Virus record (IMG/VR): IMGVR_UViG_3300047472_000102
Span: 1 to 64,000 of that record
Strand: one strand, 5' to 3'
Length of the DNA stretch: 64,000 nucleotides
Source of the DNA: a virus
The translations under genes and the position numbers were made by a program. Under the pieces are notes generated by a model that ran no database searches, had not been told where the DNA came from, and saw nothing but the letters and a program-made list of their open reading frames with translations. Below are positions 3,001 to 44,917 of the stretch, piece by piece (the first letter of the stretch is position 1; each line of letters opens with the position of its first letter).

Positions 3001-5626
3001 CAGTAGTTGCCTTCGGTTCACTAGATAATGCTTCAGGAGCCTCACTGGTAGTCGTTTCCTTCTGTGGGGTAGATTCTTCCGTTGGCTCCGCCTTCGGCGT
3101 TTGCTGAGCCTCTGTGAGTTGTTCTGAAGGTGCACGGAGATTAAGCTTCGGAACATCCACCTGCTTCATATTAAGCTGGGGATATTGCTCTTTAATCGAG
3201 TTGGAAAGCTGAGCCAAAGCAGAAGCTTCTGCATAGACAGTACGAGCAAAATTCTCAGAATTTTCATTGCCAAGATGTACCGCGGCAGTAAACTGACGAG
3301 CTTCAGGAATCCATTCATTATTGGGACCAGCAGACTGGTACTTAACCTTCGCACCTTTACCATGTTCAATAGAGCGGTTCAGGGCACCAACCTTATTGCT
3401 CTGACCTTGAGCAAACATCTCAAGAGCCTGTGCTCTTTGTTGTGCCAATAAGTCATTACCAGCACTAATGGCTTCATTAATGCCTTGAACATGCTGAACC
3501 ATAGAAAGCTGATGAGATGCCTTCCCACCCTCAGTCGCAATTTGACGAGATACTATGTCTGATACAAAAGCCTTTCCTTCTGGCTTCGTATTCGTCATTT
3601 GGTCATAGGTTTGACCAGCACGAGTTACAGCGATGGAGGAACGGATTTGGTTCTTTTGGACTTCCGTTAATTGGGCATTCCCTTGATCAGCCTGATATAA
3701 GACCTTTTCTGCAAGATCAGGATTGACAGCTTGTGGAGCAAATTGAGCCTGTCCTGCTACTTGATTAGCAACAGTAACTGGATTGCTATTAGCAGGAATA
3801 AGATCAGGCTTTTCCAGAGTAAAAAGAGCTTCTTTTACATCTGGAATAGAACCAATAGATTGAGCAATCTTTCCATAGGTCTCAAACTTCTGATAATTTT
3901 CATCATCATGGCTTACATTCTGAAGGAATGCAGGTAGATCATTATTGAAAAGATCAGCATTGTCTTTCAGCTTTTGAGCCACAAAGAGAGCAGCAGATGC
4001 TCGATCTTCAGGACTATTTTGCTCATCTCTAGCTTCGGTAGCCATGAAAGCCATGGCTTCTACGAGGTCAGGTTTAGCACCTAAAGTCTGAACCATAGAC
4101 TCCAGATTACCACGAGGAATATTTAGCAAATCCTGGTTCGAAAGAGTCAGTGCATTTTGCACCTTACCAATGTAATCCTGTGCCTGTAGATCATCCTTGG
4201 GAGCCAAGGAAGACAGACCAGTCACAACATCATTAGTCTGAGTATTAGCATCATTAACCGCAGCAGAGACAGTATCTACACTATTAGGAGCAGCACTCTG
4301 CATATTGGCAATAATAGACTTGCCTTTATCATAGACAGCCTTTGGAGCACCTGCCAATGAAGCAGCAGCATGAGACAACACAGCAGGGCCTTCAATCGCG
4401 CCTGCCGAGAGACCACCAGCCAGCGCTCCCTGTACTACTTGAGACCCAAGATCGTCCGTCAAACGCTGAGTGGTATCAGCATGTTGCTGAATTGCAAGAT
4501 TTTGAGAGAGAGTACCACTGGCGTTTTGAAGCCCCTCTTCCAGAGTCTCTTTCCCCACATTCTGTAACGCTGGCACAAGTCCGGTACCATGTAGAGGATG
4601 CGCTTCGAACCCTTCTACCAACTTACCAGTGGCAGCAGCTAAGGGGCCTTGGATCGCAGCCGCTTCTAGACCTGCTGCGTCTGCTACTCGACTGCGTGCC
4701 TCCTCTGGAGAGTACCCCTGTTGAATATAATTTCGATACTCAGGGGATTTATTCGACAGGTCATCGAATGGCGTTGAGAGAACCTGTTGACTCACTTGTG
4801 CATAAGCACCACCTGCCTCCATCGTTCCGACAGATAGCGGTATGTTTCCTTCAGCAGTTTGAACCACGCGTGGAACGAGTCCCGTACCCTCCAATGAACC
4901 AATCTCTGACAGGGCAGTCTTCGCAACAGACCCCTCAACAGCAGTCTTTAATACATCTTTACCCACTTTCTGCATCACCGAGATTGCGCCGCCAGTAGGA
5001 GCAGCTGCAAGAACAGAGCCAATACCCTGTTCAGTCAGTTCAGCAGCAGAGGTAGGATTCTCAATAAGGCGAGCAGCAGCATCTACTGCTCCTCGTCCTA
5101 CAGAGTTCAATTCAGCACTAAAACGACCATTATCAGCAAGGTCTTTTTGATATTGAGCAGTGTTATCCTGCTTATCCAATTGTTCAGTAGTTCCTGCCAA
5201 GAAGCGGGAATTCTTCTGTTCCTGGCTTTGCTGGCCTTGAAAATAGGCAATGTCATTTGCAACGGTCCGACCCACAGACTGTGCAGCATCTCGACCAAAC
5301 AAACGGGAACCAAGAGTGACAGCACCACCAGCTGAATTGATGACACCAATGCCAATATTGGAAATAGCATCACCAAGGGTCTGACCTTGGCTATCCTGAA
5401 GGTTCTGGGTAGATGCACGATTGAGGTCTACATTATTGAGACTATTAACTACCTCTGGCCCATACTTCTGGGCAAAGGTAAAAGGGTCCATCTGTGCTCG
5501 ATCAACCAGTACCTGATTATTAGCAATATCATTGCCACGGTCGAGAGCAATATTGGTAGCAGTAGGGTTCTGAGCAGCAGCCAGAATAGAGGCAATATCA
5601 TTAGAATTAGGAAGATTATCTGCCAT
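1..5626 (-). CDS. Giant virion RNA polymerase (N4 gp50-like), N-terminal 1875 residues, C-terminus outside window
   Basis: The frame is open from ATG at 5626 (Shine-Dalgarno GAGG five bases upstream) to the window edge. N4 vRNAP (about 3500 aa) is packaged in the head, injected with the DNA, and transcribes early genes from hairpin promoters. Seen here: a TxxGR-like motif (SKVGRMQMQG, Arg1330), motif A (EADGKTNG, Asp1468), motif B (RGVTKNPLTISIYGSG, Tyr1591) and a probable motif C (KVFDGINLP, Asp1860). The Asp1468-Asp1860 distance is 392 residues, the same as Asp559-Asp951 in N4 mini-vRNAP, and the A-to-B spacing is 123 against 119. The polymerase domain should therefore start near residue 910. 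It is preceded by a Glu/Thr/Ser/Pro-rich linker (about residues 840-920, near 2880-3110) and an Ala/Gln-rich N-terminal domain presumably used in ejection. Assignment is firm; the motif C call is an inference from spacing. Confidence 0.95.
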   Translation of the reverse strand, partial: MADNLPNSNDIASILAAAQNPTATNIALDRGNDIANNQVLVDRAQMDPFTFAQKYGPEVVNSLNNVDLNRASTQNLQDSQGQTLGDAISNIGIGVINSAGGAVTLGSRLFGRDAAQSVGRTVANDIAYFQGQQSQEQKNSRFLAGTTEQLDKQDNTAQYQKDLADNGRFSAELNSVGRGAVDAAARLIENPTSAAELTEQGIGSVLAAAPTGGAISVMQKVGKDVLKTAVEGSVAKTALSEIGSLEGTGLVPRVVQTAEGNIPLSVGTMEAGGAYAQVSQQVLSTPFDDLSNKSPEYRNYIQQGYSPEEARSRVADAAGLEAAAIQGPLAAATGKLVEGFEAHPLHGTGLVPALQNVGKETLEEGLQNASGTLSQNLAIQQHADTTQRLTDDLGSQVVQGALAGGLSAGAIEGPAVLSHAAASLAGAPKAVYDKGKSIIANMQSAAPNSVDTVSAAVNDANTQTNDVVTGLSSLAPKDDLQAQDYIGKVQNALTLSNQDLLNIPRGNLESMVQTLGAKPDLVEAMAFMATEARDEQNSPEDRASAALFVAQKLKDNADLFNNDLPAFLQNVSHDDENYQKFETYGKIAQSIGSIPDVKEALFTLEKPDLIPANSNPVTVANQVAGQAQFAPQAVNPDLAEKVLYQADQGNAQLTEVQKNQIRSSIAVTRAGQTYDQMTNTKPEGKAFVSDIVSRQIATEGGKASHQLSMVQHVQGINEAISAGNDLLAQQRAQALEMFAQGQSNKVGALNRSIEHGKGAKVKYQSAGPNNEWIPEARQFTAAVHLGNENSENFARTVYAEASALAQLSNSIKEQYPQLNMKQVDVPKLNLRAPSEQLTEAQQTPKAEPTEESTPQKETTTSEAPEALSSEPKATTETGENTKSIRNEIEQPSERTSGDKQPVSESEAPVQKETVETAYPRLMSNEGTGANQFHAAYRLPDKPKSRLAKLISPINDLRKLLDTPKLMVEFMDGKDVNYNISGANLDALDEILSLGSNVMRAMNERMTLPAAKKILAAFTAGKPANRWKEGRMLNIMERKGNGFIYNKQLVQSAILAGINQSLNGDRLKPNLEASDVADIMGISPDRVTPAMVADFNRGQTQSDFIRNLASNIIDYWGITTNNKASLSQTQGIAEAVAIEVIHGLAKADLLSTGSFEYHDGDTHFTQNRVYFDQRPQALIDEIGKLGAASKLLDDMILTEKSKTLGISYGSPSGNIPVEQLRSPGVKNTPKQREALAHEGSTPYLLNEPMHRLMSNLGFEFFLNYMGGQIYQEGDLNVNHERSLEGKNRTLEYSYQNVMNQVEELRSHAEKAEKPITEYPAYYDFNMSKVGRMQMQGNNNPQSDKLAREIFMPTKVTLDLNDPKQEAQFWMTVAQGVGVKTEKVTRANAIQQAQDKTLGDAKVRPIIDTIAAFLKGGELPDGFGQTIIDAMPVGSTMHGLHGLLSVAQYLNAFKDGSDSKFEHYNYLEADGKTNGPIMTTALFASRITPDIIKVLRKGGIFLGEENRSLNDHILNRDPEDLYQATTTATGKAQDDFTQSISDNPKALDKLAALSRVMAAIDANITLGEDDENGVPTLKLDRGVTKNPLTISIYGSGIDGIAGKLASSLLDGIYKHMSDLTKNGGTLDGKTYDGFVGDLKELISEEVRLTKEKEIKFSPAKGSDKGGKSNSPQDFTFSPSQFNAFKSHVRVFFVNQMHQGIHDQILQHVEPSTSALQLATNLQSIFLTGAYQQAIVDKLLALKSQEGYHEGDFLSQSDLDQIMKDLKPLSPIVNTGTQNFFIAGNQKADIMDTVTVNGTKIAMPDTFARGIDGNGQSPAFVYGPDVAGVKGVPSLVIGTGDGMIMQDAATVRNAPKGTLKVFDGINLPATDIDESSRI

Positions 5627-5707: not shown

Positions 5708-8298
5708 GGAGTAGTTGTAGCAGGTACAGGAGCCTGTGCTTTAGTATATGGTGTAACACCACTGTTAGCTGCACTAATCAAAATACTATTGAGTAACTGC
5801 AATTGTGCTTGTGCTTGTTGAAGCTGTGCTTTCAGCGATTCATTCTGAGGATTAGCATTCAAAGCAGCAGCAAGTCTATTTATACGATCCTGTACAGCAG
5901 TAACCTGTTGTGCAGTCTGTTGTACCTGTTGCTGGACAATTTGCTGTCCTTGAGCCGTAGAGAGGCGAGCAGCACCCGGAGCAATAGAAGCACCATCCTG
6001 AGTCTTCTGAACATAGTTCTTGAAGAGATCAGATGCGTGATCAGTATCAATACGTTGGGTGGTAAGACCTTCTCCTGGATTTGCTCCACCATATTTGTCA
6101 TTAAGAAATCGAGTAGCATCTGGACCATAATTCCAATTCCATAGTGGGAAACCCCACCAAGAACCAGCAGTACCAGTTTTTGGAGACTGGGCAGCAAGGA
6201 TACCTGCTACATCAGCATCTACGTTATTATTCTTCATAATCTCAGTAACTGCATCATTGATTGCAGTCGTAGGAACACCAGCCAATGGTCCCTTCTTGAG
6301 ACGTGCTACTGTATCAGCAACACTTTCTCCTCTATTAGGCCGAGAGCTAAGCTGTTGATCCAAGGAACCCAGATTGTTATTCAACTGGTCAACAACACCA
6401 GTATTGGCAATCGTAGCTGCATTACTGATAATATTCGTAGCAGCCTGATCAGGTTGGGGTTGTGGACCTTGTGTAGGTGCAGGGGTATTAGCAGCAGTAA
6501 TAGCCTGAGGCTGATATGCAGCAGTACCACCAGTAGGAATACCAGTAGCATCTACTTGCGTAGCAGTACCATTGGCATCTACCGTGAAGGTATTACCATT
6601 AGTGTCTATATAAGCTTTCTGACCATTATCCATAGTAATAGTCTTAAGCTTGGATAGAGCTTCTTGGTTCTGTTGAGCAGACGTAGGCTGATCCTGGTTA
6701 GCCTGTGTATTCGTGACATTGGTTACCGATGGAGAATCATCCACTGAACCAACGGAAGCACGAATAATAGCAGATGGATCAGAGGCAGCAGATAACTGAC
6801 CACTGAGAACACCATTAGCAGCCCCAGCAGGCGTTACAATAGGAGCATTGGTGTTATAACCACCACCAGCTACAACGCTGTTCCTAATAATCTGTGAAGG
6901 CGATAGAGGGCTGCTAGGAACTGGTTCATTAGTTCCACCAAGCTCATTAACGATCTGTCCTACGACAGAATCAGGAGCATTCTTGAGACCTACCCACTGA
7001 CCGCGAAGAGCATCAATCTTACCAGCCATGGTTCGAGGACCAGAAATAGCCTGCTTACCTATATGGGTAGCAATGGCATCCTGAGTCTGTGCATCGAATG
7101 GGGTATTGGGATCAAGACCCATCTCACGAGCAGCTTGGGCAAGCGTAGAACCAACGATCTGATAACGACCCAAGGGAGTAGCAACTACACCTTTGTTATT
7201 GGCAGCTACGAACTGACCATAAGCACCCTTTGGATTAGCAAATTCAACAGCCTGTCCAATAGTTAACTTACTTGGATCAACACCAGCAAACTGGTTATTT
7301 TGGGCATTCTTAAAGAGGGTACTATAGGAACCACCGCCCTCATATTTATCCAGAGCAGCAGTAAAAGTAGGCGTAGCATTCATGGCTCCAGTAGGAGTAT
7401 TTGGGCCAGCAGTCTGGATAAGCTGAGTAGCTGTCTTACCTACATTTGGAAGGGTATCCAACGTATCAGGAGCACGCCAGAAAGACTGGGCACCCTTACT
7501 AATTTGATCCTGAGCAGCTGCATATTCTTCAGCAGTAAGCTGAGTCTTGTATTTATCCAGAGCCTTAAGAGCAGTGTTGCTATCAACGATATCTGGACTC
7601 TGAACGATCTTATCAATGACCGTACGAACATTATTAGCACTATTATTAGTCCTAGTAAAATTCTGATCTTTGATAATGTTTTCATTGCTAGTCAGACCAC
7701 TATTGATGGCATCCAAATTTCCATTCTGGAAATCAAGCTGTTGCTGTCCATTATAGCCAGCAGCCGTAAGGGTCTTGTTATTATCAACAATAAGCTGACG
7801 ACCCTGTGCGATCTGTGCAGGATCACCAGTCTGCATAAGATCACGAGCACGAGTGAGAACATCGTTAGCAGCAGGCTGATTAGTGATATAACCTTGCTTA
7901 CGAGCTTCATCAGACTTGGCCGTATCCAGATTAAACTGGGCAGCATTATTGGCAATACCTCGACCTTGATTGGCAAGGACACCACCTTGATTATTGATAA
8001 GTTGGCCCGGTTGGGTCTGAATGTAGTTTATAGCAGCAGAATTCAGATTAGCAGGATTAATAGCACCAGAGGCAATGCCACTAGCCAGAGCCTGACGAAA
8101 CGAATTCTGATCCCCAGCAGCTGCAAGAGAAGCAATTGCCTGTCCACTATTGGCATCGATAGCAGACTTATTGAAGTCAGCAATACGATCGCTCAAACCA
8201 TTAGAAGCTTGAGCCAAAAGAGAACCAGCAGTACGTAAAGCCTCAGCTGAACCAGAGAAATTAGGGGCGTCTACATTACGCCAAGTAAGAGCGGCCAT
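5692..8298 (-). CDS. Internal virion protein with lysozyme-like domain
   Basis: 868 aa. Residues about 310-450 form a lysozyme/transglycosylase-like domain of the kind found in phage ejection proteins: LDKYEGGGSYSTLF (Glu320 is the likely catalytic acid), then GVDPSKLTIGQAVEF, PLGRYQIVG and DAIATHIG. The first 300 residues are Ala/Asn/Gln-rich and helical. The C-terminus is a Gln-rich coiled coil (about 770-845) ending in a Pro/Thr tail. No signal peptide is seen. By position next to the vRNAP it is probably packaged and ejected, cutting the peptidoglycan locally so the polymerase and DNA can pass. The enzymatic call is by motif; the exact bond cut is not known. Confidence 0.75.
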   Translation of the reverse strand: MAALTWRNVDAPNFSGSAEALRTAGSLLAQASNGLSDRIADFNKSAIDANSGQAIASLAAAGDQNSFRQALASGIASGAINPANLNSAAINYIQTQPGQLINNQGGVLANQGRGIANNAAQFNLDTAKSDEARKQGYITNQPAANDVLTRARDLMQTGDPAQIAQGRQLIVDNNKTLTAAGYNGQQQLDFQNGNLDAINSGLTSNENIIKDQNFTRTNNSANNVRTVIDKIVQSPDIVDSNTALKALDKYKTQLTAEEYAAAQDQISKGAQSFWRAPDTLDTLPNVGKTATQLIQTAGPNTPTGAMNATPTFTAALDKYEGGGSYSTLFKNAQNNQFAGVDPSKLTIGQAVEFANPKGAYGQFVAANNKGVVATPLGRYQIVGSTLAQAAREMGLDPNTPFDAQTQDAIATHIGKQAISGPRTMAGKIDALRGQWVGLKNAPDSVVGQIVNELGGTNEPVPSSPLSPSQIIRNSVVAGGGYNTNAPIVTPAGAANGVLSGQLSAASDPSAIIRASVGSVDDSPSVTNVTNTQANQDQPTSAQQNQEALSKLKTITMDNGQKAYIDTNGNTFTVDANGTATQVDATGIPTGGTAAYQPQAITAANTPAPTQGPQPQPDQAATNIISNAATIANTGVVDQLNNNLGSLDQQLSSRPNRGESVADTVARLKKGPLAGVPTTAINDAVTEIMKNNNVDADVAGILAAQSPKTGTAGSWWGFPLWNWNYGPDATRFLNDKYGGANPGEGLTTQRIDTDHASDLFKNYVQKTQDGASIAPGAARLSTAQGQQIVQQQVQQTAQQVTAVQDRINRLAAALNANPQNESLKAQLQQAQAQLQLLNSILISAANSGVTPYTKAQAPVPATTTPAPQQ

Positions 8299-29359: not shown

Positions 29360-29373
29360 ATTTGAAGAGTACT

Positions 29374-29458
29374 TTGGCGCGAGGTAGAAGCGCTAGGTGC
29401 CATCCAATTCGTCACCTAATGACATAGGACAGGATGGTTAAATGGGGGTATGCGCCAA
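29374..29458 (+). ncRNA. Structured RNA element with H-type pseudoknot between two tRNA genes
   Basis: Outer stem TTGGCGC (29374-29380) with GCGCCAA (29452-29458). Inside, TAGGTG (29394-29399) pairs with CACCTA (29413-29418), and the loop CCATCC (29400-29405) pairs with downstream GGATGG (29432-29437): an H-type pseudoknot enclosed in a closed domain. It is tRNA-sized but lacks a T-arm consensus. Class unknown. Confidence 0.55.
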
Positions 29459-29467
29459 GCCTATTAT

Positions 29468-29543
29468 TGGAATATAGCTCAGTTGGTAGAGCAGGTGACT
29501 GTTAATCACCTTGTCCCTGGTTCGAGTCCAGGTATTCCAGCCA
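29468..29543 (+). tRNA. tRNA-Asn (GUU)
   Basis: Acceptor TGGAATA/TATTCCA, G73 and encoded CCA; D-arm AGCTCAGTTGGTAGAGC; anticodon loop CTGTTAA between GGTGA and TCACC; T-arm CCTGGTTCGAGTCCAGG. All canonical. Confidence 0.95.
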
Positions 29544-29612
29544 TTAAAATCAAGAAGATGAACTGGCCCTTAGTAAGGATAATCCTGAAAAGAATAAGCA
29601 AGCTTCTTGTAG

Positions 29613-29684
29613 TCGTAGAGCAGGCTAGTATCCCTTTCTCTCCTGTGAGGGTACACTCCCTGATAAGGCTAGATAGCTCTACGA
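29613..29684 (+). ncRNA. Structured RNA element closed by a 9-bp stem
   Basis: TCGTAGAGC (29613-29621) pairs with GCTCTACGA (29676-29684). Inside, CTAG/CTAG and TATC/GATA extend the axis, and AGGG/CCCT forms a 4-bp hairpin. The opening GTAGAGCAGG resembles a tRNA D-arm, so it may derive from a tRNA, but no T-arm is present. Class unknown. Confidence 0.45.
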
Positions 29685-29719
29685 AGAATTCCTGATAGCC
29701 AGACACTATCGGGTTTAGT

Positions 29720-29827
29720 GCTGAAGGTACGCGTAAAACCGTGCTGCGAAAGAGCAGGAAGCTTGCTGTGGGGAGTTTACCCCTGTGTACTGCCTTGAGA
29801 TACGGAGCAAGAGCCTCTGCCTTCAGC
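29720..29827 (+). ncRNA. Structured RNA element (108 nt) closed by an 8-bp stem
   Basis: GCTGAAGG (29720-29727) pairs with CCTTCAGC (29820-29827). Inside: hairpin CTGC/GCAG with GAAAGA loop, hairpin GGGG/CCCC, stem CTTGCT/AGCAAG and CCGT/ACGG. It contains TTGAGATACGGAG (29795-29807), which recurs exactly at 32510-32522 in another folded element. Class unknown. Confidence 0.5.
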
Positions 29828-29864
29828 CAACTAATTCGCATGGTGAGAAATGGGTGATAACCAT

Positions 29865-30053
29865 TCAAAACCTTGCAATCACCTGCTTGGTGTAATCAGC
29901 CGTCTGTCTCTCTATGTCCCAGATACGTACCTCACAGACATAGTGGTTCAGGAATGCCACACATCCTAGAGTGCTTGAGCCGAGCAGTATTAGTCCAATC
30001 AGACAGGCCAAGGGGAGGGTAGAGTTGCAAATCTCCCTCCCTATTAATCTCAA
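29865..30053 (-). CDS. Possible small membrane protein
   Basis: Up to 62 aa, with a hydrophobic helix (LPLACLIGLILLGSSTLGCV) followed by a charged tail. The third-position pattern on this strand looks protein-coding, but the start is unclear: a TTG at 30053 has no good ribosome site. No family recognised. It could be a holin-like or accessory membrane protein, or non-coding. Confidence 0.35.
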   Translation of the reverse strand: MRLIGREICNSTLPLACLIGLILLGSSTLGCVAFLNHYVCEVRIWDIERQTADYTKQVIARF

Positions 30054-30128
30054 TTTACATTAGTCAAATCTTAATCTATGAGTATTCATAATCCGGTCTA
30101 TTCCTCCCAAGGCTCCCGGATTGTGCTA

Positions 30129-30160
30129 GGGGTAGGTTTAATACCTACCCCACTTTTTCT
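30129..30160 (+). terminator. Intrinsic terminator at the end of the tRNA/structured-RNA unit
   Basis: Perfect stem GGGGTAGGT/ACCTACCCC with TTAAT loop, followed by ACTTTTTCT. It should end transcripts carrying tRNA-Pro, tRNA-Asn and the folded elements, separating them from the genes downstream. Confidence 0.9.
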
Positions 30161-30173
30161 ATTAGAGGTTATA

Positions 30174-30368
30174 ATGTCCCAAGATGTACTTCTAAATGCA
30201 TGGGATAATCTGGAACCAATAGAAAGAGATTCCCTCAAGAAACTCTCTCCATTTAACCTCTCTGTTTATTTCAAGAATACAAATAAAGAGATCAATCTCT
30301 TTTCTCTTGACCAAATCATACCTGCTGTGGTTGATTTCATTCATTCGAATTATGGGAAGATTGGCTGA
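30174..30368 (+). CDS. Hypothetical early protein, 64 aa
   Basis: Starts at ATG 30174 with GAGGT upstream and follows directly after the terminator, so a promoter must overlap or read through it. Acidic N-terminal half (LNAWDNLEPIERDSLKKL), hydrophobic helix near the C-terminus (DQIIPAVVDFIHSNY). No family recognised. Confidence 0.6.
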   Translation: MSQDVLLNAWDNLEPIERDSLKKLSPFNLSVYFKNTNKEINLFSLDQIIPAVVDFIHSNYGKIG

Positions 30369-30466
30369 CGTGGTAAGGCCAAAGGTTCATACCCTTTGAG
30401 TACTAATGCTTCTGGGATGCGGTATTAGTCTATTGTTCGTTCAACTCGAACTCTTCTCTTGTTGAG

Positions 30467-30497
30467 TCCCCTTGGTTGTTGTCGCGGGCCAAGGGGA
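30467..30497 (+). promoter_or_regulatory. Hairpin in the leader of the DnaA-domain gene
   Basis: TCCCCTTGG/CCAAGGGGA, 9 bp with a 13-base loop, 24 bases before ATG 30521. Two weaker hairpins lie upstream (CAAAGG/CCTTTG and ACTAAT/ATTAGT, about 30380-30430). The leader 30369-30520 is non-coding and folded. Confidence 0.45.
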
Positions 30498-30520
30498 TTC
30501 CAACCCTCTCAAAAGTTACT

Positions 30521-30883
30521 ATGCAAAAATATAAAAACAGAGCACTACAAATTAGTGCAAATAATAACTGGCCATCAGAAGGTTTGTTTACACCAAAACG
30601 TGGTGACATTCTTGCCAAGGTAAGACGCCATCTGATACTAGCCATCAGTGAAGAATATCCTCATTTATCTACTACCCAACTTGGCAAGATATTTGAAAGA
30701 GATCATTCTTCCATCGTGGTTCAAAGACAACGTGCATTGAAGGAACGTGCAGATGGTGACCTACCGCATACGATACACGAAATTCAAACTGCACTACGAA
30801 GCAACAGCAGACTCGTTCTCCGAGTTGATAAAAAAGTTCGAAAAAGATACGAACCACGAAGAGAAAAGCATTACCTCGATTGA
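30521..30883 (+). CDS. Stand-alone DnaA domain IV-like DNA-binding protein
   Basis: 120 aa from ATG 30521. Residues about 30-85 match the C-terminal DNA-binding domain of DnaA (Bac_DnaA_C): RRHLILAISEEYPHLSTTQLGKIF aligns with the RxIAMYLxRExTxxSLxEIGxxF pattern, and RDHSSIVVQRQRAL corresponds to the DnaA signature RDHTTVxxAxxKI that reads DnaA boxes. The AAA+ part is absent. The C-terminal tail is very basic. It may bind DnaA boxes on host or phage DNA, competing with host DnaA or marking the phage origin. The start lacks a clear ribosome site. A short stem ACCTC/GAGGT at the stop codon followed by TTCTTTAATT may terminate it. Confidence 0.75.
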   Translation: MQKYKNRALQISANNNWPSEGLFTPKRGDILAKVRRHLILAISEEYPHLSTTQLGKIFERDHSSIVVQRQRALKERADGDLPHTIHEIQTALRSNSRLVLRVDKKVRKRYEPRREKHYLD

Positions 30884-30892
30884 GGTTCTTTA

Positions 30893-30916
30893 ATTATTAT
30901 CAATAATGATAATAAT
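30893..30916 (+). promoter_or_regulatory. Perfect AT-rich inverted repeat before the HU-like gene
   Basis: ATTATTATCA/TGATAATAAT, 10 bp with ATAA loop, 26 bases before the HU-like start. All A/T except one pair, so it is more likely an operator or DNA-unwinding/bending site than a terminator. Confidence 0.4.
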
Positions 30917-30941
30917 GCATGGTAAAAAGGAACTATAGAAA

Positions 30942-31217
30942 ATGAAAAACCTTACTGATATTGCTACAGGTATTGGCGAAGTTAATACCTATACCAAGAC
31001 CACCGCCAAGGGGGTACTGGAGCAAGCTCTGACAGTCATCTCTGCTCATCTGGCAGATGGTGAAGAGGTCAATCTTCCTGGATTTGGCAAGTTCGCTACC
31101 AGTCGTCGTGAAGCCCGTATGGGTCGCAATCCAAAGACTGGTGAGGCTACCGAGATTCCTGCTACCAACGTAGTCAAGTTCAAGCCTGCCAAGGCTCTGA
31201 AGGACTCCGTCAAGTAA
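30942..31217 (+). CDS. HU/IHF-family DNA-bending protein
   Basis: 91 aa, the normal length for HU/IHF. The core VNLPGFGKFATSRREARMGR followed by NPKTGEATEIPATNVVKFKP carries the family signature GFGxFxxxxRxxRxGRNPxTGExixIPAxxxxxFxxGKxL, including the intercalating Pro on the beta arm. The N-terminal helices are present (LTDIATGIGEVNTYTKTTAK). It is expected to compact or bend phage DNA, helping replication, packaging or transcription. It sits next to the DnaA-domain gene, a combination relevant to origin activity. Confidence 0.95.
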   Translation: MKNLTDIATGIGEVNTYTKTTAKGVLEQALTVISAHLADGEEVNLPGFGKFATSRREARMGRNPKTGEATEIPATNVVKFKPAKALKDSVK

Positions 31218-31287
31218 CACAGAGGTTGCTCTCGCTTACCTCCTTTCTCCACTCTGGTCCCGTAGTGGGTGTAAAACGGGACATTCA

Positions 31288-31363
31288 GCTTCCTTAGTTC
31301 AGTGGATAGAACGTTGGATTTCTACTCCAAATGTCAGAGGTTCGAATCCTCTAGGAAGCTCCA
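31288..31363 (+). tRNA. tRNA-Arg (UCU)
   Basis: Acceptor GCTTCCT/AGGAAGC and encoded CCA; D-stem GTTC/GAAC; anticodon loop TTTCTAC between TTGGA and TCCAA; T-arm AGAGGTTCGAATCCTCT. With this alignment base 73 is T rather than the usual A or G, which is odd. It reads AGA, frequent in AT-rich phages and rare in GC-rich hosts. Confidence 0.9.
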
Positions 31364-31374
31364 AAGGATTCAAA

Positions 31375-31557
31375 ATGGCAGGCAAAGAAATCTATCGTAA
31401 GTATCGTCAAGGATACACATTATTCATAGTAATAATTAACTTCATTAGAGGTCGCAATCGTACTGAAGAAAAATTCCAGTATGAAGACATGGAATTTACC
31501 ATGAAAAAAGACCCTAATATTAATGGTATTATTACTATTAATTATAAGGAAATTTAA
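31375..31557 (+). CDS. Hypothetical protein, 60 aa
   Basis: ATG 31375 with AAAGGA six bases upstream, right after tRNA-Arg. Basic N-terminus with a short hydrophobic stretch (TLFIVIINFI) and a Lys/Asn-rich tail. The next gene follows at one base. No family recognised. Confidence 0.55.
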   Translation: MAGKEIYRKYRQGYTLFIVIINFIRGRNRTEEKFQYEDMEFTMKKDPNINGIITINYKEI

Positions 31558-31558
31558 G

Positions 31559-31780
31559 ATGTCACTAAGCCATAAAGAAATAGGTCTTTACAGTAAATTC
31601 TACATTGAACGTGTGGATGGCAGAGACCAACCGGGTGGAGATAGAGAGAATGCAATCTACTATGTCCTCGATCTGGTCCATGACGAGTTCGCTAAAGTAG
31701 CCATGGCAGCATATGCAGAAGCCTGCATTGCAAAGTACCCTCTCTTGGCTCAAGACATTCAGAAGTTGATCAATGAATGA
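31559..31780 (+). CDS. Conserved-looking hypothetical protein, 73 aa
   Basis: ATG 31559 with AAGGA upstream. The sequence includes KFYIERVDGRDQPGGDREN and YYVLDLVHDEFAKVAMAAYA, the pattern of a small phage protein family (acidic/aromatic start, amphipathic helices). Function unknown. Its stop overlaps the next start, so the two are translationally coupled. Confidence 0.65.
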   Translation: MSLSHKEIGLYSKFYIERVDGRDQPGGDRENAIYYVLDLVHDEFAKVAMAAYAEACIAKYPLLAQDIQKLINE

Positions 31781-31949
31781 GACGCAGAAGAACATCATTA
31801 TCTCTATTTTTAATAGCTATAATATGGATCGTTCTAAGCTAGAAAAAGTACTCATTATCATTGCAGTAAAACTCCAACAAAACAGGGTCACAGATACCCT
31901 CCACGATATGGCTCATGAAGCCTGTCTACATGTCGAGTGGGAATTATGA
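31773..31949 (+). CDS. Hypothetical small helical protein, 58 aa
   Basis: ATG 31773 lies inside the end of the preceding gene and the stop TGA overlaps the next start (TTATGA). Predicted helical (SKLEKVLIIIAVKLQQNRVT), ending LHDMAHEACLHVEWEL. The tight overlaps on both sides support it as a real gene despite its size. Function unknown. Confidence 0.55.
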   Translation: MNETQKNIIISIFNSYNMDRSKLEKVLIIIAVKLQQNRVTDTLHDMAHEACLHVEWEL

Positions 31950-32161
31950 AAATCTACAAACACAAGATTAGAGGCGGATATTACATCCGCCTTTTTCATG
32001 CTCGGCTTCAGATAAATTGTTCATATGACATGGCTCATTGCGTAGTCTATATGTCCCTGAAGAAACCCTTCCTCTGGGTACGTCCAGCATCTGATTTCTA
32101 TGATGGACGATTCAAAAGAATCACATTATGGGGAGTAATAAATGATCGTTATAAAGGTTGA
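31946..32161 (+). CDS. Hypothetical basic protein, 71 aa
   Basis: ATG 31946 overlaps the previous stop (ATGA). Basic and aromatic (KIYKHKIRGGYYIRLFHARL), with GYYI-like strands that suggest a small beta-barrel. No family recognised. It overlaps the following gene by 20 bases. Confidence 0.55.
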   Translation: MKIYKHKIRGGYYIRLFHARLQINCSYDMAHCVVYMSLKKPFLWVRPASDFYDGRFKRITLWGVINDRYKG

Positions 32162-32390
32162 ACTCCATTCAGCAGTTACAGGTCGAATTACTCAATTGGG
32201 TAAGATGATAATTGCAAACGATGGCAAGTCGTATGACCCCAACATTGGTTCCTATGATGGTGTTGTCCTACGCAAACCTGACTTCAAAATAGTCACCAGA
32301 ATGGGACGAATTGAATCTCATAAAAAACATGCTGAAACCATTTGGCACTTGATAGGAAAAATGCTTTCAAATATGGGTTATATAAAATAA
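32142..32390 (+). CDS. Hypothetical protein, 82 aa
   Basis: ATG 32142 with GGGGAG at good spacing. Beta-rich N-terminal half (VIKVELHSAVTGRITQLGKM) and a helical C-terminus. The mix of short strands and a final helix is reminiscent of small phage adaptor folds. No assignment possible. tRNA-Leu follows four bases after the stop. Confidence 0.6.
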   Translation: MIVIKVELHSAVTGRITQLGKMIIANDGKSYDPNIGSYDGVVLRKPDFKIVTRMGRIESHKKHAETIWHLIGKMLSNMGYIK

Positions 32391-32393
32391 CTC

Positions 32394-32477
32394 GTGGGCT
32401 TGGTGAAACGGTAGACACAAGAGACTTAAAATCTCTCGCTTAAATGCATACCGGTTCAAGTCCGGTAGCCCACACCA
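32394..32477 (+). tRNA. tRNA-Leu (UAA)
   Basis: Acceptor GTGGGCT/AGCCCAC, A73, encoded CCA; anticodon loop CTTAAAA between AGAGA and TCTCT; long class II variable arm (CGCTTAAATGCAT); T-arm ACCGGTTCAAGTCCGGT. Canonical. Confidence 0.95.
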
Positions 32478-32478
32478 C

Positions 32479-32545
32479 TTCCCTGAAAAGACTGCCCTTT
32501 CTAGAGGGGTTGAGATACGGAGACACTCCAGTCGCAGTAAGGGAA
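32479..32545 (+). ncRNA. Structured RNA element after tRNA-Leu
   Basis: TTCCCT (32479-32484) pairs with AGGGAA (32540-32545), GACTG (32490-32494) with CAGTC (32529-32533); inner hairpins CCCT/AGGG and GGAG/CTCC. Contains TTGAGATACGGAG (32510-32522), identical to a segment of the folded element at 29720-29827. Tandem helices with a shared 13-mer suggest a small RNA family. Class unknown. Confidence 0.45.
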
Positions 32546-32627
32546 TAGGGATAGCTAGTAACTCAGTCTGGTAGAGTAGCTTCGCGAGCGTGTCGTTGGT
32601 TCAAATCCAACCTAGTGACTCCCTATT
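32544..32627 (+). ncRNA. tRNA-like element with a shortened anticodon arm
   Basis: D-arm ACTCAGTCTGGTAGAGT and T-arm GTTGGTTCAAATCCAAC are textbook, and CTAG/CTAG closes them. The anticodon arm is only about 11 nt (GCTTCGCGAGC) in place of 17. There is no CCA. Outside the body, AATAGGGA (32544-32551) pairs perfectly with TCCCTATT (32620-32627). It is either a decayed tRNA or a tRNA mimic with another job. Confidence 0.5.
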
Positions 32628-32746
32628 AATTCAAGTTGCCTCTCCATTAAACCATGGTCAAAGTGGGGTGGCATTTCCGAAGAGGGTTGCCCTTTGAACG
32701 TCGGGTAACTTAAATGATGAAGCTCAAATTCACGCCTCTTTCGTGG

Positions 32747-32821
32747 TCCCTCTTCGTTCAGTGGTAGGACGCCAGATTTTGAGTCTGGATGTGGGTGGTT
32801 CGAGTCCATCAGAGGGAACCA
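32747..32821 (+). tRNA. tRNA-Gln (UUG)
   Basis: Acceptor TCCCTCT/AGAGGGA, A73, encoded CCA; anticodon loop TTTTGAG between CCAGA and TCTGG; T-arm with GGTTCGAGTCC. Canonical; reads CAA. Confidence 0.93.
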
Positions 32822-32838
32822 TTATAAAGGATAATATA

Positions 32839-33027
32839 ATGATCACTGATCATGACTTATCACTACTAATCGCAGATGAAGGTAGATGGGAAGAATTCCA
32901 TCAAAAGAATGGTAATTTTTTTATGTATGATTACCATAAACGTATTCGTCTAAACCTAGAAAAAATGTACCGAGATCGTCAGAATCCTAAACCCAAATTT
33001 GATGATGGGTTTACTCCTGATAATTAG
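32839..33027 (+). CDS. Hypothetical protein, 62 aa
   Basis: ATG 32839 with AAAGGA upstream, just after tRNA-Gln. Starts MITDHDLSLLIADEGRWEEF; polar, with an Asp/Pro-rich tail. No family recognised. Confidence 0.6.
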   Translation: MITDHDLSLLIADEGRWEEFHQKNGNFFMYDYHKRIRLNLEKMYRDRQNPKPKFDDGFTPDN

Positions 33028-33080
33028 TATCACTAATCCCATAGTGGAAAATACTCATATAATTTTTTGGAGTGAACTTT

Positions 33081-33215
33081 ATGTTTAAAATCGTATGGTT
33101 CAAACTCAAACAATCATTTGGTTTCATTCCATATTATCATCCCTGTGATAATTGCTTTTGTTTAATGAAGTCCAATGGATTTGGACTTTGTGAAGAATGC
33201 TTAAATAAATATTAA
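33081..33215 (+). CDS. Small zinc-ribbon-like protein, 44 aa
   Basis: ATG 33081 with TTGGAG upstream. It has two cysteine pairs, CDNC and CEEC, separated by 16 residues, the pattern of a zinc ribbon. The N-terminus is basic/aromatic (FKIVWFKLKQSFGF). Probably a small metal-stabilised binding protein; target unknown. Confidence 0.6.
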   Translation: MFKIVWFKLKQSFGFIPYYHPCDNCFCLMKSNGFGLCEECLNKY

Positions 33216-33281
33216 TAGTAATAATTATTATGAATAATCGCAGTACGTTAAAATTCATATAAATGTGCACCCCCAGTGTAC

Positions 33282-33333
33282 ACCCGGTACACCCTCCTTA
33301 CACCAACTATCCCCCCCCCTATGTGTACCGGGT
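33282..33333 (+). other. 11-bp perfect inverted repeat around a C9 run
   Basis: ACCCGGTACAC (33282-33292) and GTGTACCGGGT (33323-33333) flank a 30-base pyrimidine-rich loop containing nine consecutive C. It lies in the 166-base non-coding gap before the gene at 33382, together with an AT-rich -10-like stretch (CATATAAAT). It may be an operator, promoter hairpin or origin element. Confidence 0.5.
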
Positions 33334-33381
33334 ATCCGTCGCTCCGCTCCTTATAGTGTCAACTCATTAGGAGTAATAATC

Positions 33382-33720
33382 ATGAGCAACATCACACAGA
33401 CCTTTGGTAAGCTACTCAACACTGTCAGCACTGTAGCTGACGCAGCTACCAAGATCGTAGATACATCCACATCTGGTGTGGATATGCTGGATACGTTCGT
33501 ACGTAGCCAGAAGCAGAAGCAGGATGCTCGTACAGCAGTAGATATGTCTACGTTCTACGAAGATCTTCAGAATGAAGCAGCATTGGAAAATGCATACAAA
33601 GCAGATGCTCTTGAAAAAGCACTTGCAAGTGATCCAACACTGAAAAAGCATTTCGAAAATCAACACAAAAACCTGAACGATATCATCAATACCGTTCGAA
33701 CCAAGTATCAACCTGAATAA
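33382..33720 (+). CDS. Hypothetical helical protein, 112 aa
   Basis: ATG 33382 with AGGAG upstream. Almost entirely helical and polar, with N-terminal TFGKLLNTVSTVADAATKIV and a charged coiled-coil C-terminal half (ADALEKALASDPTLKKHFEN). Such Ala/Thr/Lys helical proteins are common in early phage operons. Codon use suggests good expression. Function unknown. Confidence 0.7.
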   Translation: MSNITQTFGKLLNTVSTVADAATKIVDTSTSGVDMLDTFVRSQKQKQDARTAVDMSTFYEDLQNEAALENAYKADALEKALASDPTLKKHFENQHKNLNDIINTVRTKYQPE

Positions 33721-33728
33721 CAAAAAAC

Positions 33729-33754
33729 GTAGCTCACTGTAAAAGGTGAGCTAC
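33729..33754. terminator. Hairpin after the 112-aa gene
   Basis: GTAGCTCAC/GTGAGCTAC, 9 bp with 8-base loop. The T-run (GTTTTTTG) is on the minus-strand side, so it is a good leftward terminator but a poor rightward one; on the plus strand it may act mainly as an mRNA 3' stabiliser. Confidence 0.55.
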
Positions 33755-35535: not shown

Positions 35536-35688
35536 ATGAAATTCAGGGTGCATTTTGAGAATAACGAGGGTGAACGCAAGGTCGAAGTAGTCGATGCAGA
35601 ACACCCAGAAAAAGCAGCCAACATCATTCGTAAGAAGCATGAAGGCTCATTCGTCATCAAAACCAAGATTGACCGTGAGGCAGCTTAA
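35536..35688 (+). CDS. Hypothetical protein, 50 aa
   Basis: ATG 35536 with AAAGGTGA upstream. Sequence KFRVHFENNEGERKVEVVDA then a Lys-rich helix resembles small phage proteins with a beta-beta-alpha layout. Stop overlaps the next start (TAAATG). Confidence 0.55.
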   Translation: MKFRVHFENNEGERKVEVVDAEHPEKAANIIRKKHEGSFVIKTKIDREAA

Positions 35689-35940
35689 ATGTCCAAGCTC
35701 AAAGGCATTTCACAACGTGAACTGGCTGAGATCGAAGATGAACATGAATATCTGACTAGCATCGATAAAATCTCCAAGCAGGATTTGGAGGAACAACAAC
35801 GTATTACTGATGAAGCAGATTACCAGCAATATCTTAAGGAAGTTGAATGGGAGATTGCTGAAGAAAATAGACGTATCCAAGACAACTATGAACATTCATG
35901 GGATGGCATGGATGATGATCCCTCATGGGATTGGGACTAA
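35689..35940 (+). CDS. Hypothetical very acidic protein, 83 aa
   Basis: ATG 35689. Strongly acidic helical protein (Glu/Asp near one third of residues), e.g. RELAEIEDEHEYLTSI, ending WDGMDDDPSWDWD. DNA-mimic proteins of phages share such composition, but no specific family is recognised. The hammerhead ribozyme begins one base after the stop. Confidence 0.6.
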   Translation: MSKLKGISQRELAEIEDEHEYLTSIDKISKQDLEEQQRITDEADYQQYLKEVEWEIAEENRRIQDNYEHSWDGMDDDPSWDWD

Positions 35941-35941
35941 A

Positions 35942-36005
35942 GCATCACTGATGAGACTTGATTAGTTGAAATAATAGCTTCAGAAATGGAGCTATTATCT
36001 GATGC
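35942..36005 (+). ncRNA. Type I hammerhead ribozyme
   Basis: All elements are present in order. Stem I: GCATCA (35942-35947) with TGATGC (36000-36005). Core CTGATGA (35948-35954). Stem II: GACT/AGTT with TGATT loop (35955-35967). Core GAAA (35968-35971). Stem III: TAATAGCT/AGCTATTA (35972-35979 with 35990-35997) with a 10-base loop. Then T35998 and C35999, with cleavage predicted after C35999 (AUC site). Both ends are in stem I, so it is type I. It lies between two genes in the sense direction. After cleavage the new 5' end can refold as GATGC/GCATC (36001-36018), a hairpin that would cap the mRNA of the downstream gene. Confidence 0.88.
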
Positions 36006-36050
36006 AATGTGTAGCATCTTTATATTAACCCCATTAATAGGAGATTTATA

Positions 36051-36455
36051 ATGGGCCTTCTCGATAACCTCGCAGCAGAACGTAACCGTACTGCTAACAC
36101 TTCCAGCACCACTCGTCGTACCAATACCGATACTCGTGAGCAGGCCAAGGTCTGGCTCAATGTAGGCTTTGAAGTTGACGGCAAGTTCGTCAACCTGCCT
36201 TTGGGTCTGGCTATCGATACCATGGAGCCTGTACAGGTCCGTGGTCAGAACCAGGAATGGCTGGAACTCCAGACTGCACGTAATGAATTGCTTCAGGCAA
36301 TTCAGGAAGCAGGTGCTGAACTCGAACCCGGTCAGGAGCGTGAGCTTCCTCTCGTGGTTCGTATTCGTCATGTCAATGACGCTGTACAGATCGATGCCAA
36401 GAGCAATCCGCTCAGCATGGCAAAGGCTGGCATCAGCTTCAAGAAGGAAGCTTAG
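36051..36455 (+). CDS. Conserved phage early protein downstream of the ribozyme, 134 aa
   Basis: ATG 36051 with TAGGAG upstream. Ser/Thr/Arg-rich N-terminus, then KVWLNVGFEVDGKFVNLPLG and LAIDTMEPVQVRGQNQEW, ending in a beta strand region (LVVRIRHVNDAVQIDA). Similar proteins recur in many unrelated phages and are sometimes called ssDNA-binding; I cannot confirm that. Codons are strongly optimised (CGT, CTG, GGT), it has its own ribozyme-processed leader and a strong terminator, so it is probably abundant as a monocistronic mRNA. Confidence 0.75.
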   Translation: MGLLDNLAAERNRTANTSSTTRRTNTDTREQAKVWLNVGFEVDGKFVNLPLGLAIDTMEPVQVRGQNQEWLELQTARNELLQAIQEAGAELEPGQERELPLVVRIRHVNDAVQIDAKSNPLSMAKAGISFKKEA

Positions 36456-36466
36456 TATCAATAATC

Positions 36467-36494
36467 GAGGAGAGCCAAAAGCTCTCCTCTTTTA
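36467..36494 (+). terminator. Intrinsic terminator after the 134-aa gene
   Basis: GAGGAGAGC/GCTCTCCTC with CAAAA loop followed by TTTTAAATT. Strong. The following 36496-36596 is non-coding, with hairpin GACTG-ATT-CAGTC (5-bp stem, 3-base loop) near 36525-36537 and a TATAAT box near 36564, so a promoter is likely here. Confidence 0.92.
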
Positions 36495-36596: not shown

Positions 36597-37058
36597 ATGA
36601 GTGACACCTGTAACCTATCGAGGTCTAAAATGATCGACTTATTTAGAGGAGAATATGCATTCCTAAGCAACTTCTATCCATGCATTATTGAGATTAATGG
36701 ATATAAGTTTAAAAGCTCAGAAGCAGCTTATCAGGCTGCTAAATCAGAAGACCCAATAGATTGGGCTAGATTTCAGCATTACGATGCATCCACATCCAAG
36801 AAGCAAGGAAGAGAGCTAAAGCTCCGTCCTGACTGGGAAGAGATCAAGCTAGACGTTATGCGTCAGATTCTTGCAGTCAAATTCATAGACAATCGAGAGC
36901 TACTCATGGCACTCCTAGCCACACGTCCACATGAACTCGTAGAGGGTAATTGGTGGGGTGATAGGTTCTGGGGTGTCTGTAGTGGTCAAGGACAGAACCA
37001 ATTAGGCAAGCTCCTCATGGAATTGAGAGAGCGTTTACAAGGAGACCTACCATGGTAA
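36597..37058 (+). CDS. NADAR-family protein (YbiA-like N-glycosidase)
   Basis: 153 aa. Motifs of the NADAR/YbiA family: LFRGEYAFLSNFYPC, YKFKSSEAAYQAAKSED, KKQGRELKLRPDWEEIKLDV, LLATRPHELVEGNWWGDRFWGV and GQNQLGKLLMELR. NADAR enzymes hydrolyse N-glycosidic bonds, including removal of ADP-ribose from guanine in DNA (as antitoxin to DarT1-type toxins) and of riboflavin intermediates. In a phage it may reverse host ADP-ribosylation or handle NAD-derived defence signals. Starts at ATG 36597 or ATG 36630 (MIDLFRGEY); the latter fits the family N-terminus. Overlaps the next gene by seven bases. Confidence 0.85.
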   Translation: MSDTCNLSRSKMIDLFRGEYAFLSNFYPCIIEINGYKFKSSEAAYQAAKSEDPIDWARFQHYDASTSKKQGRELKLRPDWEEIKLDVMRQILAVKFIDNRELLMALLATRPHELVEGNWWGDRFWGVCSGQGQNQLGKLLMELRERLQGDLPW

Positions 37059-43711: not shown

Positions 43712-44917
43712 ATGCAAACATTCACCGCAAAGCAGTATCTCCAAATCGACATTGCAAACAATTTTGGCAATGACAAGGAAGACTGGGATGTGCGTCTTGC
43801 TTGGTTCGAAGAGAACGAGCGTAGATTAGAATCACTAATCAAAGAGGCAGCAGAACCTGCAATGTATGAAGCAGGTGTAAGGGCATATCGATCTGCAATG
43901 AAGGGTAATGTAAATCATTACCCTATTTCTTTGGATGCAACATCCTCAGGAATTCAGATTCTCTCCTGCCTCACTGGTGATCGCAAGGGTGCCGAACTCT
44001 GCAATGTAGTAGACGTAGGTAGGCGTATGGATGCTTACACAACGATGTATCAGCAGATGGCAGAGAAGATTGGTGAGTCCACCAAGATCGACCGTAAGGA
44101 CGTTAAAAAGGCAGTTATGACTTCCTTCTATGGTTCCGAGGCTGTACCGAAGCGTGTCTTTGGAGAAGGTGCCCTATTGGCTACCTTCGAAGAAACCATG
44201 GAAGAAGGTGCACCTGGAGCATGGGAACTTAACAAGGCCATGCTCGATATCTGGGACCCAAATGCAACAAAATACTCATGGGTTATGCCTGATAATTTTC
44301 ATGTACATATCAAGGTCATGACCTCTGAAACTGGCATTGTTCATTTCCTGAACAAGCCCTATGAAATCACATACACAATCAATGCTTCACTTGAGAAGGG
44401 ACGTTCTCTTGGAGCCAATTCAACCCATTCCATTGACGGCATGATTGTTAGAGAAATGGGTCTACGTTGTAACTATGATCCAGAGCAGATTAGTAAGATT
44501 AATGCTTTGCTTGATCCCAAGCTAAGATTTCTTCCTACGGCTCCTACTTCAAAGGAAGACGAACTTGTCAAAATTCTATGGGATCATTATCTGGATTCTG
44601 GCTTTCTTAGTGCCCGCATCCTCAGCTATCTCAGCCATACGAACATCGGATTGGTTGACCGAACCGTCATCTTCGATCTGGTCATGTCACTACCAAAGAA
44701 ACCTTTCCAGATTATATCTGTGCACGACTGCTTCAGGTGTCTTCCAAACTATGGAAACGATTTGCGTAGGCAATACAATCTATTACTGGCACATATCGCA
44801 AAGTCCAATCTGCTTTCGTTCCTACTCTCTCAAATCACTGGACGACTACTTACAATAGGTAAGTTGGACCCTGATTTGTGGAAGGATGTAATCCACGCGA
44901 ATTACGCGTTAAGCTAA
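43712..44917 (+). CDS. RNA polymerase II, large subunit (N4 gp16-like; catalytic part of a T7-type RNAP)
   Basis: 401 aa (N4 gp16 is about 404). Contains the catalytic centre: motif A ISLDATSSGIQILSCLTGD (Asp75), motif B DRKDVKKAVMTSFYGSE (Arg128, Lys132, Tyr140, same internal spacing as T7 Arg627, Lys631, Tyr639) and motif C IISVHDCFRCLPNYG (His338-Asp339). The first 60 residues align with the region just before motif A. It needs the N-terminal subunit at 40996-41808 for a complete enzyme. Ribosome site AGAGGA before ATG. Confidence 0.93.
   Translation: MQTFTAKQYLQIDIANNFGNDKEDWDVRLAWFEENERRLESLIKEAAEPAMYEAGVRAYRSAMKGNVNHYPISLDATSSGIQILSCLTGDRKGAELCNVVDVGRRMDAYTTMYQQMAEKIGESTKIDRKDVKKAVMTSFYGSEAVPKRVFGEGALLATFEETMEEGAPGAWELNKAMLDIWDPNATKYSWVMPDNFHVHIKVMTSETGIVHFLNKPYEITYTINASLEKGRSLGANSTHSIDGMIVREMGLRCNYDPEQISKINALLDPKLRFLPTAPTSKEDELVKILWDHYLDSGFLSARILSYLSHTNIGLVDRTVIFDLVMSLPKKPFQIISVHDCFRCLPNYGNDLRRQYNLLLAHIAKSNLLSFLLSQITGRLLTIGKLDPDLWKDVIHANYALS

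What the first reader, a model, noticed from the sequence alone, without database searches (positions are those of the whole stretch)
35942..36018. Complete type I hammerhead ribozyme in the early region of an N4-like phage
The sequence shows stem I GCATCA/TGATGC, core CTGATGA, stem II, core GAAA, an 8-bp stem III and the AUC cleavage site in the right order and spacing. Downstream, GATGC (36001-36005) can re-pair with GCATC (36014-36018), which would cap the cleaved 5' end. The gene that follows (36051-36455) has optimised codons and its own strong terminator, so the ribozyme may cut out a stable monocistronic mRNA and separate it from the upstream genes. Hammerheads are known in some phages, but its use as a processing site here is inference.
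Basis: partly seen in the sequence, partly recalled or inferred. Interest (0 to 1): 0.88.

Follow-up and report, generated by a model that had tools for sequence, protein, structure and literature searches.

The report
Self-cutting RNA replacing a phage promoter
A bacterial virus related to coliphage N4 carries a complete hammerhead ribozyme (an RNA that cuts itself) exactly where its relatives have the early promoter for gene 2, so the cut probably makes the gene 2 messenger end that a promoter makes elsewhere.

Summary
Window 35942-36005 (+) is a complete type I hammerhead. A covariance model built from 50 other phage hammerheads scores it 49.1 bits (E 2.3e-8 over 1.09 Mb). My descriptor finds it once, and never at that score in 2000 shuffles. 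It matches the phage class beyond the core (A before a 6-bp stem I, G-C closing pair, AA after, UNANU loop II). It departs at the nearly invariant G10.1-C11.1 pair (G-U here), so its rate is uncertain.

The next gene is the homologue of N4 gp2. In 48 of 58 N4-like loci a hairpin promoter of the virion RNA polymerase lies just upstream of gp2 (shuffles: mean 3.6, maximum 11), often followed by a hairpin at the RNA 5' end. The nearest relative, OLIVR1, has the promoter motif twice, before gp1 and before gp2. This phage has it only before gp1. Before gp2 it has instead an orphan gene plus the hammerhead, whose cut (35999|36000) falls at the expected +1, one base before an equivalent leader hairpin (36001-36018).

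Best reading: the ribozyme releases gp2 mRNA in place of the lost early promoter. Cleavage and function are inferred. Phage hammerheads that process transcripts are known; this placement appears new.

The parts
33338..33356 (+). Putative early promoter P1 (GTCGCTCCGCTCCTTATAG, heptamer GCTCCGC centred 11 nt before A33355)
   Evidence: Only copy in the window at <=3 mismatches, none in the remaining 11.4 kb; OLIVR1 has two copies, at gp1 and gp2
33382..33720 (+). gp1 homologue (by position and similarity to OLIVR1 gp17)
   Evidence: Translation; shared stretch with OLIVR1 4848-5189 seen
35536..35688 (+). Homologue of OLIVR1 gp25, the gene that directly precedes P2-gp2 in OLIVR1
   Evidence: 51% identity, E 1e-13
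35689..35940 (+). Orphan 83-aa gene inserted between the gp25 homologue and the hammerhead; stop codon 1 nt from stem I
   Evidence: No match in 50,697 phage records
35942..36005 (+). Type I hammerhead ribozyme; predicted cleavage between C35999 and T36000
36001..36018 (+). Leader hairpin GATGC-AATGTGTA-GCATC; starts 1 nt after the cut; excludes stem I once formed
36030..36055 (+). Start-codon hairpin CCCATTA...TAATGGG with GGAG (36040-36043) in the loop
   Evidence: Kept with compensatory changes in rhizobial relatives
36051..36455 (+). N4 gp2 homologue (ssDNA-binding cofactor of RNAPII in N4)
   Evidence: 32% identical to N4 gp2 over the alignment, 54% to OLIVR1; phrog_4099 E 1.6e-28
36467..36489 (+). 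Intrinsic terminator GAGGAGAGC-CAAAA-GCTCTCCTC-TTTT

Best explanation
The element is a type I hammerhead ribozyme that makes the 5' end of the gp2 mRNA by RNA cleavage, in place of the second early promoter (P2) that most relatives have at this spot. Early transcription from P1 (33338-33356), or from further upstream, reads through the orphan gene 35689-35940. The hammerhead folds as it leaves the polymerase and cuts after C35999. The downstream product begins U-GAUGC-AAUGUGUA-GCAUC: it folds into a hairpin that starts one base from its 5'-OH end, takes up the 3' strand of stem I so that the cut cannot easily be reversed, and is followed by the start-codon hairpin, gp2 and a terminator. An insertion of an orphan gene plus hammerhead would have removed P2, and the ribozyme keeps gp2 as a separate message. 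Shown: ribozyme sequence and structure, gp2 identity, presence of P1, absence of P2, geometry of the leader. Inferred: cleavage, read-through, the replacement event, and any gain in mRNA stability.
For: Ribozyme: model R1 49.1 bits, E 2.3e-8, 0 of 2000 shuffles, agreement with class features outside the core. Gene: N4 gp2 homologue, required for N4 middle transcription (PMC4496689). Promoter: hairpin promoter within 160 nt upstream of gp2 in 48 of 58 N4-like loci, shuffles mean 3.55 and maximum 11; leader hairpin within 2 nt of the expected +1 in 24 of 48, shuffles mean 7 and maximum 11. N4 itself shows GCTCCGC then GGATG-AAGTAATG-CATCC. The -11 heptamer rule is from PMC4496689. OLIVR1 has the motif at 4805 and 6977; this phage only at 33338. 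Synteny: gp25 homologue - P2 - gp2 in OLIVR1; gp25 homologue - orphan gene - hammerhead - gp2 here. From the predicted +1 or cut to ATG: 46 nt in OLIVR1, 51 nt here. No terminator with a T run was found on the + strand between P1 and the ribozyme.
Against: No RNA or cleavage data. G10.1-U11.1 occurs in only 2 of 558 phage hammerheads, this one included, so cleavage may be slow or lost. Nine other loci also lack the promoter by my descriptor without having a hammerhead, so absence alone is not diagnostic. The leader hairpins correspond by position and shape, not by sequence. No second phage with the same arrangement was found; the RNAPII tree does not firmly resolve the nearest branches. A hairpin without a T run follows gp1 (33729-33754) and could weaken read-through. 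OLIVR1's promoter hairpin is itself imperfect (2 bp, a 2-nt mismatch, then 2 bp).
Confidence: 0.58

Rival explanations
1. An ordinary phage processing hammerhead: it cuts the polycistronic early RNA between two genes as part of a gene-plus-hammerhead cassette. The loss of P2 is incidental and gp2 has another start, for example a middle promoter or read-through.
For: Phage hammerheads typically sit at the stop codon of one gene and about 24 nt before the next, often several per contig; processing into single-gene mRNAs was already proposed by Perreault 2011 (PMC3088659).
Against: Does not explain why the cut lies at the position of the relatives' +1, one base before a leader hairpin of the same kind, nor why P2 is missing exactly here.
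Confidence: 0.27
2. A decaying or very slow hammerhead: the G10.1-U11.1 wobble and the rare U15.2-A16.2 pair cripple it, and gp2 is expressed from the uncut message.
For: G-C at 10.1-11.1 in 555 of 558 class members; C-G at 15.2-16.2 in 95%. Once 36018 is transcribed, the predicted alternative fold beats the active fold.
Against: Catalytic core, long stem III, tertiary-contact positions and flanks are all intact, which is unexpected under decay; the active-like junction is the MFE until 36016 is made.
Confidence: 0.12
3. It limits upstream genes: cleavage leaves their mRNA with a 2',3'-cyclic phosphate end, or lets ribosomes stopping at 35938-35940 gate folding, so it tunes the orphan gene rather than gp2.
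For: The stop codon abuts stem I here and in many phage hammerheads.
Against: The upstream gene is an orphan, whereas gp2 is a conserved early gene that lost its promoter.
Confidence: 0.03

Closest known systems
Type I hammerhead ribozymes of phages and prophages (Perreault et al. 2011, PMC3088659)
   Same: Core, open stem I, intergenic position between small same-strand genes; cleavage shown in that paper for prophage examples, including a triple array in Agrobacterium tumefaciens.
   Different: Those flank variable genes; here the ribozyme sits at the site of a known early promoter, before gp2. G10.1-U11.1 is unusual.
RAGATH-1-hammerhead, Rfam RF03152
   Same: Best Rfam match, over the whole model, including CUGAUGAGACUU (32.6 bits).
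   Different: Below the gathering score of 56.3; stem II and the end of stem III depart from its consensus.
Hammerhead of Agrobacterium phage OLIVR1 (3958-4013) and schitovirus contig L096 (1817-1870, - strand)
   Same: Same class (57.4 and 58.8 bits), N4-like phages, early region.
   Different: Another site, upstream of gp1, followed by a conserved non-coding stretch rather than gp2.
N4 virion RNA polymerase early promoters P1/P2 (PMC4496689)
   Same: What the ribozyme seems to stand in for: both would give a gp2 mRNA with a hairpin at its 5' end.
   Different: A DNA hairpin recognised by a polymerase and giving a triphosphate end; here an RNA cut gives a 5'-OH end.

Membership tests
Hammerhead ribozyme, type I | Core C3UGANGA9, G12A13A14, A15.1-U16.1, H17 | tested here: met
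   CTGATGA, GAAA, A35971-T35998, C35999
Hammerhead ribozyme, type I | Three stems, with stem I open at the ends | tested here: met
   6, 4 and 11 bp; MFE keeps the three-way junction up to 36016
Hammerhead ribozyme, type I | G10.1-C11.1 closing pair of stem II | tested here: not met
   G-U wobble; G-C in 555 of 558 phage relatives. A strong preference, not one of the catalytic core positions, so I treat it as a doubt about rate and not about membership
Hammerhead ribozyme, type I | Self-cleavage after H17 | not testable with these tools
   Needs in vitro transcription
   All present; 49.1 bits by a model built without it
RAGATH-1-hammerhead RF03152 | Score at or above the curated gathering cut-off | tested here: not met
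   32.6 bits against 56.3
N4 vRNAP early promoter | GC-rich heptamer at -11 within a hairpin, upstream of gp2 | tested here: not met
   None within 160 nt upstream of 36051
N4 gp2 | Sequence homology and position early, before the RNAPII genes | tested here: met
N4 gp2 | ssDNA binding and RNAPII recruitment | not testable with these tools
   Shown for N4 gp2 (PMC4496689)

The most novel reading that the evidence does not exclude
A ribozyme has evolutionarily replaced a promoter: the early gp2 transcription unit of an N4-like phage, normally started by the virion RNA polymerase at P2, is instead produced by hammerhead cleavage at the same point, with the same kind of 5' hairpin leader. This would be RNA processing taking over the job of a transcription start site.
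Probability: 0.5. Interest if true: 0.7.

Novelty: new member of a known kind. Interest (0 to 1): 0.52.

Why it matters
Why phages carry hammerheads is an open question; the usual proposal, cutting long transcripts into single-gene mRNAs, lacks a case where the unprocessed alternative is known. Here relatives show what is probably the ancestral solution (promoter plus leader hairpin) and this phage shows the ribozyme in the same place, so the function becomes directly testable in one well-studied transcription programme.

Tried and rejected
1) Same-site comparison with relatives: none of about 70 N4-like loci has a hammerhead before gp2, so conservation at this site cannot be tested. 2) One-protein search for relatives with P0001 found none; the 11-row alignment found 57. 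3) General 're-pairing cap' rule for phage hammerheads: only 27 of 329 against 13.4 expected, too weak to be a class feature. A first clustering on whole contexts collapsed into one cluster and was discarded. 4) Sigma-70 promoter between ribozyme and gene: the one match (36025-36052) overlaps the start codon and the region has fewer matches than shuffles. 5) Genome-wide scan for promoter-plus-leader modules by geometry alone was swamped by coding-region hairpins; the motif route worked. 6) Rfam at gathering scores: tRNAs only. 7) The strict promoter descriptor gave 31 of 58; loops of 4 nt had to be allowed to reach 48 of 58, a choice made after seeing the sequences but applied equally to the shuffles.

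Full report
What is there. The window (64 kb of a 75,370-base virus record) is from an N4-like phage: the homologue of N4 RNAPII gp16 is at 43712-44914, 56% identical, and the nearest named relatives are Agrobacterium phages OLIVR1-3. At 35942-36005 lies a complete type I hammerhead: stem I GCATCA/TGATGC, CTGATGA, stem II GACT-TGATT-AGTT, GAAA, an 11-bp stem III with a GAAA tetraloop, U16.1 and C17. The predicted cut is C35999|T36000.

Is it more than chance. A descriptor for all three hammerhead types gives one hit in the window with score 20. In 2000 dinucleotide shuffles 14 hits reached 10, two reached 13 and none reached 18. Rfam's best family is RAGATH-1-hammerhead at 32.6 bits, under its gathering score of 56.3. 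The bare pattern CTGATGA...GAAA is expected about 1.5 times per window by chance, so the stems are what carries the evidence.

The phage class. With two more patterns I collected 558 type I hammerheads, in 329 clusters by downstream sequence. Features not fixed by the search patterns are strongly kept: stem I of exactly 6 bp (94%), A just before it (97%), G-C closing pair (89%), AA after it (70%), C17 (89%). The flanking A and AA remain the commonest letters in the 229 hammerheads that no pattern had matched (205 and 140 of 229). The stems covary: 98.9% of cells paired and 207 cells with both sides changed, against 48 in shuffles. The window element has all these features. A covariance model from 50 of them (window and OLIVR1 not included) finds three hits in 1.09 Mb of N4-like sequence: L096 (58.8 bits; this one was in the training set), OLIVR1 (57.4) and the window (49.1, E 2.3e-8). 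Two departures matter: G10.1-U11.1, seen in 2 of 558 including this one, and U15.2-A16.2. They leave the rate of cleavage open.

The gene behind it. ORF 36051-36455 is the homologue of N4 gp2 (54% identical to OLIVR1, 32% to N4; [quoted passage not shown] A strong terminator follows at 36467-36489. Its codon usage ranks 4th of 43 ORFs against a capsid reference.

The missing promoter. N4 early promoters have a GC-rich heptamer centred at -11 in a hairpin (PMC4496689). N4 shows AAGAAGC-TCC-GCTTCTT upstream of gp2, with a second hairpin GGATG-AAGTAATG-CATCC at +1. Upstream of gp2 in 58 N4-like loci, 48 have such a hairpin within 160 nt (shuffles mean 3.55, maximum 11), and 24 of these 48 have a leader hairpin within 2 nt of the expected +1 (shuffles mean 7, maximum 11). 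In OLIVR1 the motif GTCGCTCCGCTCCT-N-TAG occurs twice, at 4805 before gp1 and at 6977 before gp2. In the window it occurs once, at 33338-33356 before the gp1 homologue, and not in the remaining 11.4 kb. Before gp2 there is no promoter of this kind.

What stands there instead. In OLIVR1 the order is gp25, P2 overlapping its stop codon, gp2. In the window it is the gp25 homologue (51% identical), an orphan gene of 83 codons without relatives in 50,697 phage records, the hammerhead, gp2. The cut lies 51 nt before the gp2 ATG; the predicted OLIVR1 +1 lies 46 nt before it. One base after the cut comes GATGC-AATGTGTA-GCATC, placed like the leader hairpins of relatives (OLIVR1 GAGG-AATAAT-CCTC). Predicted folds keep the ribozyme junction until 36016 is transcribed; once GCATC is out, the leader hairpin wins. 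So cleavage has a kinetic window, and the product cannot easily re-form stem I.

Mechanism and its limits. The simplest reading is that an orphan-gene-plus-hammerhead insertion took the place of P2, and that ribozyme cleavage of read-through RNA now makes the gp2 message. Shown: sequence, structure, homology, motif presence and absence. Inferred: cleavage, read-through from P1, the replacement event, stability. Weak points: the wobble pair; nine other loci lack the promoter by my descriptor without a hammerhead; only one phage shows the arrangement; a hairpin without T run follows gp1; the RNAPII tree is poorly resolved near the window, though OLIVR1 is the nearest row at 66% identity.

Re-pairing as a general feature. 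Over 329 independent phage hammerheads, 27 have a downstream copy of the 5' stem I strand that could re-pair with loop 3-12, against 13.4 after permutation and never as many in 300 permutations. Real but sporadic.

Known or new. Hammerheads flanking phage genes, their cleavage and the processing idea are known (PMC3088659). No paper in the library joins hammerhead ribozymes with N4-like phages, or hammerheads with Schitoviridae. The ribozyme is a new member of a known kind; the placement in lieu of a defined early promoter is the new part.

Noticed in passing
window 36030-36055; L001, L002, L005, L006, L007, L015 upstream of gp2: Start-codon hairpin with the Shine-Dalgarno in its loop, kept with compensatory changes in rhizobial N4-like phages (CCCATTA/TAATGGG, CCATGA/TCATGG, CCATCA/TGATGG); possible translational control of gp2, perhaps by the protein itself.
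   Followed up: partly
L001 3958-4140 and L096 1690-1870 (- strand): A second schitovirus hammerhead, upstream of gp1, followed by about 130 nt of conserved, apparently non-coding and structured RNA; no Rfam family matched there in OLIVR1.
   Followed up: partly
L001 about 3834-3948: A tRNA-like stretch with a 7-bp GCCGGGG/CCCCGGC acceptor-like stem and ACCA end, just upstream of the OLIVR1 hammerhead.
   Followed up: no
L069-L386 (IMG/VR contigs): Phage hammerheads are very common and form a stereotyped class packed between small genes, median 0 nt after a stop and 24 nt before the next start; Rfam at its cut-offs misses them in contigs L163, L098 and L085.
   Followed up: partly
L183 5688-6813: Three pistol ribozymes on the same phage contig as several hammerheads.
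   Followed up: no
window 36597-37058: NADAR-domain protein gene right after the gp2 unit (Pfam PF08719); possible role in NAD or ADP-ribose counter-defence, by family only.
   Followed up: no
window 29360-33300: Long gene-poor early stretch with five tRNA genes and few long ORFs.
   Followed up: no
L042 upstream of gp2: Same imperfect promoter hairpin as OLIVR1 (GTCGCTTCGCTCC), suggesting a vRNAP promoter variant with a 2-nt internal loop.
   Followed up: no
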